DNA of 11,787 bases from Gammaproteobacteria bacterium. GTDB taxonomy: Bacteria > Pseudomonadota > Gammaproteobacteria > SZUA-229. The notes below the pieces were generated by a model. The model was not told the DNA's origin. It worked only from the letters and a program-made list of their open reading frames with translations, and ran no database searches. Both the position numbers and the translations under genes were made by a program. Location: assembly GCA_030641945.1 (NCBI GenBank), contig DAOWLL010000020.1:1-11787 (forward strand), written 5' to 3'. Shown here piece by piece: positions 281 through 8,993 of the stretch (positions within the stretch are counted from its first letter, which is position 1; each line of letters begins with the position of its first letter).

Positions 281-476
281 GCGCCTGTAGCTCAGTTGGG
301 TGAGGCGGGACCGAATGTCCAGTGGACATTCGCAGCACAACGAACGACCGGCAGGACGCCGGGCCGGACTCAGGTGAATTGAAGCGAGGACAGGAGTCCG
401 AGTGCCAGATCTGTGGATGTCCACTAGAATGCCGGCACATCCCAACTGTTTGAGTATCGGCCTCCGAAGCCGAAGG
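281..476 (+). pseudogene. Broken tRNA-Arg copy split by an inserted segment
   Basis: Bases 281-299 match the first 19 bases of the intact tRNA-Arg at 581 with one change (acceptor 5' strand GCGCCTG, TA, D-stem GCTC, start of the D loop). Bases 452-476 match 603-627 of the intact gene with one change in 25 (D-stem 3' strand, anticodon arm with CTCCGAA loop, start of the variable loop). About 150 bp separate the two parts, and the T arm and acceptor 3' strand are missing, so it cannot make a tRNA. An 8-bp inverted repeat, CAGTTGGG (293-300) and CCCAACTG (441-448), flanks most of the inserted DNA. Both tRNA pieces are followed by the same junction type (GTGAG then GCGGGAC), as if related elements entered twice. 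Confidence 0.7.
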
Positions 477-545
477 GTGAGCGGCGGGACAGGAGCCGCG
501 AACGCAAGGCAGGACGCCGAGCTGGATGCCTGACACGGACGTTAC
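300..545. repeat. Cluster of short hairpins with NGGA loops (two related segments)
   Basis: Two segments, about 300-440 and 477-545, share the order GTGAG-GCGGGAC ... GAACG-GGCAGGACGCCG-GC-GGA. Visible hairpins: a 10-bp palindrome at 312-332 centred on G322; GGCAGGACGCC type near 351 and near 511; GGACAGGAGTCC near 388; GTGGATGTCCAC near 411; GCGGC/GCCGC enclosing GGGACAGGA near 482. Stems differ while AGGA or GGAT in or near the loop is kept. Loop-exposed GGA is what CsrA/RsmA proteins bind, but this is also a style of intergenic repeat, so the role is open. The reverse-strand open frames across it are composition artefacts. Confidence 0.55.
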
Positions 546-5752: not shown

Positions 5753-7840
5753 ATGACAACAATAGCAGCTGAACTATACACCGCTAAACACAGCCACAGC
5801 CGAATGCCCGCATTGTTACGTTTGCTTGGTGCACTGGCCCTGTATATCTGTTTTGGTTTATTAGCAGAATACGCCTATGCGAATAACAACGAACTTAACC
5901 CGCTAGAATCGACACACGGTTCTGTCTGGTTGCTAGCTGAAAACGGCATCTACGTTAATACCCTGTTACTGAAAACCGACGCCAGTTTCGACGTTTCCGG
6001 CATGATCGCACGCGCAACAGTCAAGCAACATTTTAAAAATAACAGCAGCTTCTGGGCCGAAGCTATTTATGTGTTTCCACTGCCTGAAAACGCTGCGGTT
6101 GATCATTTTAAACTCCGTATTGGTGAACGCTTGATCGAAGGGCAGATACAGGAAAGAGCCCAGGCCAAAAAAACCTACGAAACAGCGAAAAACGAAGGTA
6201 AACAGGCCGGCCTGGTAGAACAGCAAAGAGCCAATATCTTTACAACATCACTAGCCAATATAGCACCGGGAGAGGAAATCACTGTCGAGATCGAGTACCA
6301 GCAAACACTGGATTATAAAGACGGCAGGTATCGATTACGCTTTCCGATGGTTGTTGGGCCTCGCTTTAATGCGTCAAGTCATATCATGCCCGATGACAGC
6401 AATGACACCGATGTAAACACTGCAATTTCAAACTCAATGGTAAACCCTGTATATATACATGTATCACTGGATGCAGGTGTTCCGCTGGCAGAACTTGACA
6501 GCACTTACCATGCTATCGATATCAAGCAGACGGACCCACACCGTTACAGCATTGCGCTTGCGCCCGGAAAGGCGTTTGCAAACCGTGATTTCGAACTTGT
6601 ATGGCATCCTGAGCTAGGCCATCAGCCACAGACTGCCGTTTTCACCGAACAGCATAATGGCTATGAATATGCATTACTTTCGGTTCTTCCTCCTGACCTT
6701 CGCTCACTTGGCCAGAAACTGCTGCCTCGCGATGTTGTATTTATCCTCGATGTCTCCGGCTCAATGGGTGGAACCTCGATCGAGCAGGCCAGAGCTTCAT
6801 TAATACAGGCACTGGGTCGACTTAAAGCAGAGGATCGTTTCAACATCATCTGGTTCAATGATCGCAGCGAACGTCTTTATCCACACGCTATGCCTGCAAC
6901 CAGCCATAACATTCAATACGCGAGCGCGATCATTAACAATCTGAATGCGAGTGGCGGAACCGTTATGCTGCCGGCACTGGCACTTGCGCTCAATGAACAG
7001 CCCGATCTATACCGTGTCAGGCAGATTATCTTTCTCACCGATGGCAATGTAGACAATGAACATGAACTGTTTGCAGTAATCAATGAGCAGTTAGGCGATA
7101 ACCGCTTATTTACCGTTGGCATCGGTTCTGCACCAAACAGTTACTTTATGCGCAAGGCAGCACGTGCCGGTCGCGGCAGCTTTACCTATATTGGTGATAT
7201 TGATGAAGTTCAGCAAAAAACCGATGCGCTGCTGGAAAAACTGGAATCGCCTGCGCTGGTCAATATAGACATGAGGATTGAGGGGCTGGACGTCGAATCC
7301 TTTCCGGATCCAGTACCTGACCTGTACCTGGGCGAGCCACTGACTGTACTGATTCGTGGCAAACAGCTCGGCAACAGCATTAGCCTTTATGGAGATTATG
7401 GCGAAAGCGATTGGCAACAAAAGCTTGAATTATTCGACGGTATAGATCATTCAGGCATTCGAACCGCCTGGGCGCGCAACAAGATTGCATTCCTGCTGGA
7501 GCAACGCCATGATGCCGAAACAGAAAATCACCGTGATGCATTAAAAAATAAAATCGTACAAACATCCATCGAACACCACCTGGTGAGCCGCTTCACCAGT
7601 CTTGTTGCTGTCGATGTTACGCCTGTTAACAACAGCGGTCTGTTATACAGTGAAAAACTGAAAACTAATCTTCCACATGGCTGGACACTCGGCCAGTTAA
7701 AACAACCGGCCAGGCAGCAGATGCTCATGGCCCAACTCAACCTGCCGCAAACTGCAACCAGCGCTTCATGGCACATGATAATAGCTTCGATGCTGTTTGC
7801 ACTTGCGATGGTTTTCTATCTATGGAGAAAGCTAATATGA
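5753..7840 (+). CDS. Sortase substrate: VIT and von Willebrand A domain protein with LPQTA anchor
   Basis: A 695-residue surface or periplasmic protein, the evident substrate of the neighbouring sortase. Numbering is from ATG 5753, chosen for GGAG six bases upstream; ATG 5741 would add four residues. The signal peptide has a hydrophobic core at about 19-37 and ends AYA (about 43). A VIT domain follows (about 55-190, with FWAEAIYVFPLPENAAVDHF). The vWA domain (about 327-500) has an intact MIDAS: DVSGS with Asp333, Ser335 and Ser337, plus Thr403 and Asp430. The inter-alpha-trypsin-inhibitor-like tail has VSRFTSLVAVD. The C terminus is a sorting signal: LPQTA (664-668), a hydrophobic segment (about 675-690) and a basic RK tail. 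This matches the marine proteobacterial sortase target family, often the only substrate in its genome. The gene overlaps the sortase by ATGA. Its ligand is unknown. Confidence 0.95.
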   Translation: MTTIAAELYTAKHSHSRMPALLRLLGALALYICFGLLAEYAYANNNELNPLESTHGSVWLLAENGIYVNTLLLKTDASFDVSGMIARATVKQHFKNNSSFWAEAIYVFPLPENAAVDHFKLRIGERLIEGQIQERAQAKKTYETAKNEGKQAGLVEQQRANIFTTSLANIAPGEEITVEIEYQQTLDYKDGRYRLRFPMVVGPRFNASSHIMPDDSNDTDVNTAISNSMVNPVYIHVSLDAGVPLAELDSTYHAIDIKQTDPHRYSIALAPGKAFANRDFELVWHPELGHQPQTAVFTEQHNGYEYALLSVLPPDLRSLGQKLLPRDVVFILDVSGSMGGTSIEQARASLIQALGRLKAEDRFNIIWFNDRSERLYPHAMPATSHNIQYASAIINNLNASGGTVMLPALALALNEQPDLYRVRQIIFLTDGNVDNEHELFAVINEQLGDNRLFTVGIGSAPNSYFMRKAARAGRGSFTYIGDIDEVQQKTDALLEKLESPALVNIDMRIEGLDVESFPDPVPDLYLGEPLTVLIRGKQLGNSISLYGDYGESDWQQKLELFDGIDHSGIRTAWARNKIAFLLEQRHDAETENHRDALKNKIVQTSIEHHLVSRFTSLVAVDVTPVNNSGLLYSEKLKTNLPHGWTLGQLKQPARQQMLMAQLNLPQTATSASWHMIIASMLFALAMVFYLWRKLI

Positions 7841-8421
7841 ACACCCGGAACAGGCTGACTTTCGTATTTATAATCCTCGCTGCTGCTGCATTGTGGCAGC
7901 TGGGACTGGCAGGCTGGATACATACCAAGGCACACACAGCTCAGATACTGCTTGATCGGGCCTGGCAGCAAACACTGATCAATCAAGAGCAGAACAAACC
8001 CTGGCCCTGGGCAGATACCTGGCCTGTGGCAGAACTTATTGTGCCGAGTCTTGATATCTCACAAATCGTACTCGCCGGTGACAGCGGTGCAACGCTGGCA
8101 TTCGGGCCTGGCCATTCATTTGCCAGCGTCATGCCTGATAAACGCGGCACCGTGATGATCAGCGGACACCGCGACACCCATTTCAGGTTTCTGCAAAATC
8201 TAAAAGCAGGGCAACGGCTTATTTTGAAAACAAAGTCAGGTATTCATTATTACGTGGTTAACAGAACACAAATTGTTGATAGCCAAAGCTACACAATTGA
8301 AACAAACAACGATGAATTAGTACTTGTAACCTGTTACCCGTTCAATTCCGTCATAGTTGGCGGCGCTGAACGCTACCTGGTTTATGCACAACGCGAGCGG
8401 ATAAAGGCAGTGAATAGTTAA
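7837..8421 (+). CDS. Class GN sortase
   Basis: A 194-residue transpeptidase that should cleave the LPQTA signal of the upstream protein between Thr and Ala and join it to an unknown acceptor. A single N-terminal membrane anchor (about 7-27) places the catalytic domain in the periplasm. The catalytic triad is visible: His111 (ISGHRDTHF), Cys166 (LVTCYPF) and Arg179 (GGAERYLV). The start ATG 7837 overlaps the stop of the substrate gene (ATGA) and has GGAG upstream at 7824-7827; starts further upstream lie inside the substrate gene. The gene's last codons run into a heptamer repeat, and the stop TAA lies in its second copy. Remnants resembling its C terminus (ERYLVYAQRERI) occur downstream at 8630-8666 and 8776-8812. 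Dedicated one-substrate sortases of this type occur in Gram-negative Proteobacteria. Confidence 0.95.
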   Translation: MNTRNRLTFVFIILAAAALWQLGLAGWIHTKAHTAQILLDRAWQQTLINQEQNKPWPWADTWPVAELIVPSLDISQIVLAGDSGATLAFGPGHSFASVMPDKRGTVMISGHRDTHFRFLQNLKAGQRLILKTKSGIHYYVVNRTQIVDSQSYTIETNNDELVLVTCYPFNSVIVGGAERYLVYAQRERIKAVNS

Positions 8422-8450
8422 TAGTGAACAGTGAACAGTGAACAGTGAAT
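8409..8450. repeat. Heptamer tandem repeat overlapping the sortase stop
   Basis: Six tandem 7-bp units: AGTGAAT, AGTTAAT, three AGTGAAC, then AGTGAAT. The first two contain the last codons and the TAA stop (8419-8421) of the sortase gene, so slippage in the later copies would not change the protein. Confidence 0.85.
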
Positions 8451-8462
8451 AATAAGGATTAT

Positions 8463-8500
8463 AGCGCCGGTTATGATCGCCTTATCTCAGCCTGCAGCTC
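8463..8500. repeat. Degenerate copy of the REP-like hairpin
   Basis: GCGCCGG, then GCCTTATCTCAGCCTGCAGCTC, resembles the second half of the units further on (ACGCCGGG, then GCCTTATCCCGGCCTACAACT). It is probably an older, decayed half-unit. Between 8501 and 8552 nothing recognisable is seen. Confidence 0.45.
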
Positions 8501-8629
8501 GCCTTTAATGATCTTAAATCCACTCGATGTAAACCTATGCTATTTGTTAATCCGTGGGTCTGCCTAAGCGAAGCGTTGCAGGCTAAGTATAACGCCGGGA
8601 ACGCAAAAGCCTTATCCCGGCCTACAACT

Positions 8630-8666
8630 GAACATTACCTGCTCTACGTACAACGCAAGCGGATAA
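8630..8666 (+). pseudogene. Remnant of the sortase 3' end, copy A
   Basis: Aligned without gaps to 8368-8404 of the sortase gene, 30 of 37 bases agree. In the same frame it reads EHYLLYVQRKRI, then Ile and a TAA stop, against ERYLVYAQRERIK in the gene. It cannot be expressed alone. Whether it is a duplicated gene tail or a repeat that contributed the gene's end is unknown. Confidence 0.6.
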
Positions 8667-8775
8667 TCTAAAGCATGCATGAGCAGCGGGAATGCTTATA
8701 CGTAGGCCTTCATAAGCGAAGCGTTGCAGGCAATATATCGCCGGGAACGCAAAAGCCTTATCCCGGCCTACAACT

Positions 8776-8812
8776 GACCGCAACCTAATATATGTACAAC
8801 GTTAGCGGATAA
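8776..8812 (+). pseudogene. Remnant of the sortase 3' end, copy B
   Basis: 29 of 37 bases agree with 8368-8404. It reads DRNLIYVQR, a stop, RII, stop, so it has decayed further in coding sense. It differs from copy A at 10 positions, more than either differs from the gene, which fits the gene being the source. Confidence 0.55.
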
Positions 8813-8993
8813 TCTAAAGGATACATTAGCAGCGGGAATGCTTGTACGTAGGCCTTCATAAGCGAAGCGTTGCAGGCTATGTATAACGCCGGGACGCAAA
8901 AGCCTTATCCCGGCCTACAACTGACAGACAGAAATATGATACGGATATGTCTTCTCGCAATGACACCAGGATCGTAAAGAAAGCTTCGGCTCG

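What the first reader, a model, noticed from the sequence alone, without database searches (positions are those of the whole stretch)
8368..8812. Copies of the sortase gene's 3' end embedded in the downstream tandem repeat
The last coding part of the sortase (8368-8404) aligns without gaps to 8630-8666 (30/37) and 8776-8812 (29/37). In frame the copies read EHYLLYVQRKRI and DRNLIYVQR against ERYLVYAQRERI. The two copies differ more from each other (10 changes) than from the gene, which points to the gene as source. So a REP-like hairpin and a gene tail have been amplified together. Possible explanations: tandem duplication spanning the gene end, or a small element that inserts at this 3' end and restores it, as integrative elements do at tRNA genes.
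Basis: partly seen in the sequence, partly recalled or inferred. Interest (0 to 1): 0.72.

Follow-up and report, generated by a model that had tools for sequence, protein, structure and literature searches.

The report
REPIN array amplified with gene tail
Short hairpin repeats that are scattered through this bacterium's genome have been duplicated in a row behind a sortase gene, carrying a piece of the gene's end along, and the borders of the duplication match the two-letter cut site of the enzymes thought to move such repeats.

Summary
The sortase tail (8366-8404) recurs at 8628-8666 and 8774-8812 (30/37 and 29/37; at most 22/37 in 40 shuffled windows). The "REP-like hairpin" is a REPIN (inverted doublet of GTAG-tagged REPs) of a family dispersed through this genome; the tail copies were found only here. 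So the gene end is the source, and the 146-bp unit is a tandem REPIN cluster with its flank, a known kind of array. The copies lie nearer to this gene than to relatives' genes and have decayed: local duplicates, not an element that restores the gene.

Two results go further. At other REPINs of this genome, of a congener and of another genus of the family, copies of a neighbouring gene's end or other local flank stand behind the REPIN (SDR gene, folE2, hemE and others); two of these differ mainly at third codon positions. And at 6 of 8 REPIN-anchored loci the copied stretch begins at C|T in the source (4.9% expected), where REP transposases (RAYTs) cut in vitro. I favour RAYT strand joining; joining at two-base homology is not excluded. 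The genomes showing this are fragmented drafts.

The parts
7837..8421 (+). class GN sortase gene; its tail (8366-8404) is the source of the copies
   Evidence: TIGR03784, 191.3 bits, cut-off 158.25
8366..8404 (+). sortase tail, source segment; unit border C8366|T8367
   Evidence: repeat family D4
8408..8449 (+). (CAGTGAA)n repeat that overlaps the present stop codon of the gene
   Evidence: TRF, score 63
8460..8496 (+). degenerate single REP (b type) between gene and array
   Evidence: alignment score 33, best of 300 shuffles 28
8554..8625 (.). REPIN 1 (first tetranucleotide GTGG instead of GTAG)
8628..8666 (+). tail copy 1; border C8628|T8629
   Evidence: 82% to the gene
8667..8701 (.). spacer 1
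   Evidence: unique to this contig
8702..8771 (.). REPIN 2
8774..8812 (+). tail copy 2, with an in-frame stop; border C8774|T8775
   Evidence: 79% to the gene
8813..8847 (.). spacer 2
8848..8918 (.). REPIN 3; right-hand C8921|T8922 follows

Best explanation
A REPIN (a short inverted REP doublet, non-autonomous, thought to be served by a RAYT) sat behind the sortase gene. Twice, a segment running from a C|T in the gene's tail to the C|T just outside the REPIN's right end was duplicated in tandem, so each new unit is tail + 35-nt spacer + REPIN. A CAGTGAA repeat and a degenerate REP now lie between gene and array and have changed the gene's last codons; the tail copies have decayed. Shown: the structure, the source, the uniqueness of the tail copies in the genome held, C|T at the borders, and REP transposase genes in this genome and a congener. 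Inferred: the order of events, and that the joining is RAYT strand transfer (the C at a REPIN end joined to a T in the gene tail of a sister strand) and not ordinary slippage. The same reaction with a diverged allele would give the single-REPIN loci whose second tail differs as coding DNA does.
For: Tail homology and tandem unit. REPs dispersed, tail copies only here. Copies nearer to this gene than to relatives' genes. Unit borders C8366|T, C8628|T, C8774|T and C8921|T. Locus-specific copies anchored at REP ends begin at C|T in source and copy at 6 of 8 loci, against a CT frequency of 0.049 (p = 3.6e-7). CT stands two bases beyond CCTAC at 18 of 63 b-type REP ends. TnpAREP of E. coli and Stenotrophomonas cut at C|T, that of Marinomonas at CT and CA (PMC8266576, passages). 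REP transposase model NF047646 above cut-off in G000 (L113) and in G004 (L123, with REPs on both sides). Tail copies found behind 5 of 121 ORF ends with a REP within 600 nt and 4 of 735 without (Fisher p = 0.004).
Against: Two of the eight anchored loci lack C|T: L142, a tandem cluster whose duplicated flank lies on the other side, and L122, a low-complexity flank. L150 has C|T in the source but T|T in the copy. In L138 and L096 the copy starts about 22 and 118 nt away from the REP. Two shared bases are also what microhomology joining would leave. No REP was found on the contig of the G000 RAYT (L113) or within 4 kb of the weaker one (L112). A 200-kb sample of E. coli K-12 showed no such copy except the paralogues yiiE and yiiF (low power). 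The tail part of the two units differs more than the rest (10 of 37 against 6 of 109, p = 0.0009), which simple duplication does not predict.
Confidence: 0.5

Rival explanations
1. Ordinary slippage or unequal exchange between two-base or longer chance homologies made the tandem array; RAYT has no part, and REP ends take part only because hairpins stall replication.
For: The copied stretches share only C and T with the REP end in every case, which is also a two-base microhomology. Tandem REPIN clusters with flanks are common where known (PMC3116915, section 11). L142 has no C|T.
Against: Any shared pair of bases would serve slippage, yet 6 of 8 are CT. It does not explain the coding-like second tails of L096 and L138.
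Confidence: 0.3
2. Integration-like insertion: the REPIN enters at a C|T in a gene end and the process duplicates 20 to 120 bp of target, so that the gene end is kept. The sortase array is such an insertion followed by amplification.
For: Single REPINs flanked by direct repeats of local sequence at L104, L128, L136 and L150. For L128, G000 has the unfilled site with one tail and no REPIN.
Against: For folE2, G004 has a REPIN at the same place but no second tail within the 330 nt read. IS200/IS605-type insertion is not known to me to make target duplications (recalled). The L096 and L138 tails are too different, and in a coding-like way, for duplicates of one event.
Confidence: 0.12
3. A small element specific for the sortase 3' end inserts there and restores the gene, as integrative elements do at tRNA genes.
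For: Tail copy directly beside the REPIN end.
Against: No integrase in the unit; copy 2 has a stop; no array behind the sortases of G004, G002, G006 (700 nt read) or G003 (86 nt); other REPINs of the family lie at unrelated genes.
Confidence: 0.03
4. Assembly error: the draft genome joined reads wrongly at repeats.
For: G000 is a fragmented draft (634 contigs, 86% complete); L159 shows a near-perfect inverted repeat at a contig start that looks like such an error.
Against: A wrong join at a dispersed REPIN would not be expected to land in the tail of the same gene, and the pattern recurs in three genomes.
Confidence: 0.05

Closest known systems
Tandem REPIN clusters of Pseudomonas fluorescens SBW25 (Bertels and Rainey 2011, PMC3116915; section 11 and passages read)
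   Same: Tandem repeats of near-identical REPINs including their flanking sequence; 16 such clusters reported; local amplification
   [quoted passage not shown] S7); in the parts I read, gene tails in the unit and C|T borders are not mentioned. The supplement was not read.
BIMEs of E. coli with TnpAREP (PMC8266576, passages read)
   Same: GTAG-tagged REP and inverted REP doublets, tandem copies; the enzyme cuts and joins single strands at C|T in vitro
   Different: How REPs spread is stated to be unresolved; natural C|T-bordered duplications are not mentioned in the passages seen. My 200-kb sample of K-12 held no tail copy behind a REP apart from the yiiE/yiiF paralogues.
Chromosomal tandem duplications with REP at the join point (Shyamala et al. 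1990; only the title seen, in a reference list)
   Same: REP at the border between duplicated segments
   Different: Those are large duplications (recalled); here the units are about 146 bp and the border is the outer end of the REPIN
Integrative elements that restore tRNA 3' ends (recalled, no paper read)
   Same: A copy of a gene's 3' end beside a mobile element
   Different: No integrase, no fixed target gene, tail copies in the window decayed

Membership tests
REPIN / BIME | REP hairpin with a GTAG tetranucleotide at its 5' side | tested here: met
   REPIN 2 and 3 begin GTAGG and end CCTAC; REPIN 1 begins GTGGG
REPIN / BIME | two REPs in inverted orientation forming one unit of about 70-100 bp | tested here: met
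   70-72 bp doublets; in the sample 47 of 93 clusters are doublets and 44 single REPs
REPIN / BIME | many dispersed copies in the genome | tested here: met
   50 matches listed in G000, 4 of them in this array
REPIN / BIME | RAYT gene in the genome, beside cognate REPs | tested here: inconclusive
   RAYT above cut-off in G000 (L113) but no REP found on its contig; in G004 the RAYT L123 has REPs on both sides
tandem REPIN cluster | REPINs repeated in tandem together with flanking sequence | tested here: met
   146-bp unit, 2.5 copies by TRF
RAYT-made rearrangement | strand joining at C|T by the RAYT itself | not testable with these tools
   only the borders can be read: C|T at 6 of 8 loci
integrative element restoring a gene 3' end | own integrase or recombinase in the unit | tested here: not met
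   the 146-bp unit has no room for one; no such gene among the window proteins scanned
integrative element restoring a gene 3' end | recurrence at the same gene end in relatives | tested here: not met
   no array behind the sortases of G004, G002 and G006 (700 nt read) and G003 (86 nt only); G001 breaks off before the gene end

The most novel reading that the evidence does not exclude
RAYTs join the C at a REPIN's outer end to a T inside a neighbouring gene tail on another DNA molecule. Between sister strands this gives tandem REPIN clusters that carry gene tails; between diverged alleles it brings in a foreign gene end together with the REPIN and leaves the other tail behind. Such C|T-bordered tails would be natural footprints of how REPs spread and would make REPINs a route of gene-end exchange between lineages.
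Probability: 0.3. Interest if true: 0.75.

Novelty: new variant of a known kind. Interest (0 to 1): 0.52.

Why it matters
The way REPs spread is stated to be unresolved (PMC8266576, passage). Gene tails are readable markers: their codon pattern tells age and origin, and their borders show where strands were joined. If C|T borders hold in complete genomes, the test-tube chemistry of RAYTs would gain a genomic footprint that can be counted, and REPIN clusters could be traced as sites of gene-end exchange.

Tried and rejected
Dispersed repeat as source of the gene end: rejected; the tail copies match nothing else in G000 as held or in the 81 stretches sampled. Sortase-specific element: rejected (see rivals). 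My first impression that many REPINs have flanking duplications was partly wrong: a good part of those flanks are other dispersed repeats (CGCAGAG, CACTATTC and CAGTGGCGAGG types), and in the flank test mismatched pairs scored up to 32.5 for that reason; hence the locus-specificity check. The expectation column printed was faulty (it counted homologous genes between genomes) and was not used. Inverted lysS tail (L159): set aside as a probable assembly foldback, 1 difference in 162 at a contig start. In the notebook I wrote that the second SDR tail of L096 leads to the same downstream gene as in G001 and G007; a direct test found no match, so that claim is withdrawn and which side is native is unresolved. 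No trace of the 35-nt spacer was found between gene and REPIN 1 (321 of 500 shuffles as good). Remnant of a tandem paralogue as source of the L096 tail: less likely, since each of the four congeners with a match has one copy (capped list), but not excluded.

Rows dropped before the C|T count (15 rows): two further window rows and one further L142 row (same arrays), L157 (same sequence as L114), and L117, L123 and L106, whose segments hit 7 to 67 of 81 stretches. Counting the last three as misses gives 6 of 11, p = 5e-6; leaving out L114, which is short (19 nt) and weak, gives 5 of 7, p = 5e-6 (where the label reads 5 of 8). L128 was kept although its full segment hits 8 stretches, because its first 24 nt are unique. 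L150, L138 and L096 are outside the count; by my reading the source has C|T in all three.

Full report
What is there. The window is contig C280 of an unnamed draft genome (G000: 634 contigs, 86% complete, 3.5% contamination). The locus is a dedicated sortase system: response regulator-like and kinase-like genes (best models TIGR03787 and TIGR03785, below their cut-offs), PdsO, sortase target protein and class GN sortase (the last three above cut-off). Behind the sortase stands an array of three REPINs (8554-8625, 8702-8771, 8848-8918) with two intervals, and each interval begins with a copy of the sortase tail.

Is it more than chance? Yes. The two copies match the gene at 30 and 29 of 37 positions; nothing else in the window exceeds 20, and the best of 40 shuffled windows was 22. 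The homology begins at C8366-T8367, two bases before the stated start.

The hairpin is a dispersed REPIN; the tail is not dispersed. The 146-bp unit searched in its own genome gave 50 listed matches, 4 of them in this array; the other 46 cover only query positions 1-51 or 103-146, that is the two REP parts. The tail-and-spacer part alone matches only this array (E up to 10). A REPIN query had matches in 5 of 40 genomes: 26 in G000, 26 in G004 (same genus), 25 in G007 (another genus of the family), 1 each in G002 and G013; the first three are lower bounds because only 23 candidates were scored in each.

Direction and age at the window. Over the 37 nt the gene differs from G002 by 5 and from G004 by 6, copy 1 by 12 and 11, copy 2 by 13 and 12, while the copies differ from the gene by only 7 and 8. 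The copies therefore came from this lineage's own gene and have since decayed: by three-point arithmetic 6 to 8 changes on each copy and 0 to 1 on the gene. Codon positions of the differences are unremarkable (2/2/3 and 3/1/4), and copy 2 has a stop. The two copies share GTA where the gene, G004 and G006 have GCA (GCG in G002, GCC in G003), and share the sequence after ATA, so one copy was probably made from the other. Between the two units 10 of 37 tail positions differ against 6 of 109 elsewhere (Fisher p = 0.0009). I have no firm account of this beyond constraint on, or homogenisation of, the REPs.

The pattern is wider than the sortase. I took 80 contig stretches, nearly all chosen because they hold REPs of this family, from G000, G004 and G007 (with the window 81 stretches, 831 kb, 146 REPs in 93 clusters), and compared the last 75 nt of each of 856 ORF ends with the 600 nt behind it. 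At a score of 14 or more and within 20 nt of the stop, 5 of 121 ends with a REP in those 600 nt have a tail copy, and 4 of 735 without one (Fisher p = 0.004). Of 856 mismatched control pairs one scored 20 and the next 13. By eye, three of the four without a REP are other repeats or chance ORFs (a CCGCAAATGAACGC-type repeat in L114, a dispersed motif in L159, a spurious ORF at tRNA fragments in the window); the fourth is a 20-nt local repeat in L134. The five are the sortase, an SDR gene (L096, 124 nt), folE2 (L104, 30 nt), hemE (L138, 40 nt, in G007) and a PepSY_TM gene (L128, 20 nt of gene, in G004). The end of a DUF3047 gene (L150) and two noncoding flanks (L136, L143) show a similar arrangement.

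Two cases are not decayed duplicates of one event. In L096 the gene and the second tail differ at 26 positions, 7/2/17 by codon position, and 14 of 19 changed codons are synonymous; in L138 the nine differences fall 1/0/8 and 7 of 8 changed codons are synonymous. With G004 as third sequence the L096 second tail has 10 private changes (3/1/6) and the gene 15 (3/1/11). A freely drifting copy of the same age would be expected to have about 33, by my rough estimate from third positions (p near 3e-6). In L138, gene and second tail are each 8 to 11 differences away from the two genomes of the nearest matching genus (G015, G023), about as far as from each other (9). So in both cases one of the two tails probably comes from a diverged allele. 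Which one is native I cannot say: the 114 bp behind the L096 gene are shared with G004 at 89%, but the gene beyond the second tail matched none of eight relatives' loci as far as they were held.

Unfilled and half-filled states. For L128, G000 has the gene end and the following CAGTGG-type sequence once, without a REPIN. For folE2, G004 has a REPIN remnant at the same place but no second tail in the 330 nt read, and G002, G006, G003 and G001 show neither there (read by eye). So a REPIN can be present before, or without, the tail copy.

The border is C|T. Of 139 REP ends tested, eight loci have a locus-specific copy that begins within 8 nt of the REP; in six, source and copy both read C|T at the start (window, L104, L128, L136, L143, L114) and in two they do not (L142, L122). 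CT makes up 4.9% of dinucleotides in the ends of six of these genes, which gives p = 3.6e-7; with the three dropped dispersed loci counted as misses, 6 of 11 and p = 5e-6. CT stands two bases beyond CCTAC at 18 of 63 b-type ends, against 0 to 8 at the other 13 positions counted; a-type ends favour the position four bases beyond, 15 of 68. In the passages I read, TnpAREP of E. coli and of Stenotrophomonas cut REP substrates at C|T, that of Marinomonas at CT and CA, and in the E. coli assay the incoming strand abuts the T (PMC8266576). Caution: two shared bases are also what microhomology joining would leave, and the alignments that define the borders are short.

The enzyme. G000 has a RAYT above the NCBIfam cut-off (L113, 172.4 bits, cut-off 80) and one below it (L112, 72 bits); G004 has one (L123, 177 bits) with REPs on both sides. 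No REP was found on the L113 contig or within 4 kb of the L112 gene.

A control outside the group. In four 50-kb pieces of E. coli K-12 (193 ORF ends, 17 with a REP match within 600 nt) the only tail similarity above 11 was that of the adjacent paralogues yiiE and yiiF, which have a REP match behind yiiE. At the rate seen here fewer than one case was to be expected, so this neither supports nor refutes.

Known and new. REPINs, tandem REPIN clusters that include flanking sequence (PMC3116915, section 11 read), local REPIN amplification (PMC8049555, passages) and C|T cleavage are known. I saw no description of gene tails in such units, of coding-like second tails, or of C|T borders of natural clusters in the listings of six paper searches and in passages of six papers. 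The library lacks most subscription papers, one relevant paper was not held and supplements were not read, so this is weak evidence of novelty.

Judgement. The window feature itself is a tandem REPIN cluster that took a gene tail with it: a new variant of a known kind. The wider pattern, if it holds in complete genomes, would tie the test-tube chemistry of RAYTs to natural rearrangements, and that is what lifts the score.

Noticed in passing
window 281-500 and 581-657: An intact tRNA-Arg(ccg) at 581-657 is preceded by what look like pieces of the same tRNA: a 5' part near 282-300 and an anticodon-arm part near 452-480, separated by about 150 nt.
   Followed up: no
L096 / L176 (SDR gene flank in G000 and G004): The composite of REPIN and CGCAGAG-type arms behind the SDR gene lies in opposite orientation in the two species (part of it aligns inverted, the first 114 bp direct).
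   Followed up: partly
L159:1-560 (G000:C185): Near-perfect inverted copy of the lysS tail around a REPIN at a contig start, 1 difference in 162 nt; probably an assembly foldback.
   Followed up: partly
window 8404-8421: The last codons and stop of the sortase overlap a CAGTGAA repeat, so a noncoding repeat seems to have rewritten the C-terminus.
   Followed up: partly
L204:29264-29969 (E. coli K-12): The end of yiiE resembles the end of the adjacent yiiF, and a REP match lies within 600 nt behind yiiE.
   Followed up: no
L142:3930-4330 (G007:C19): Tandem REPIN pair whose duplicated flank lies downstream of each REPIN and does not start at C|T.
   Followed up: partly
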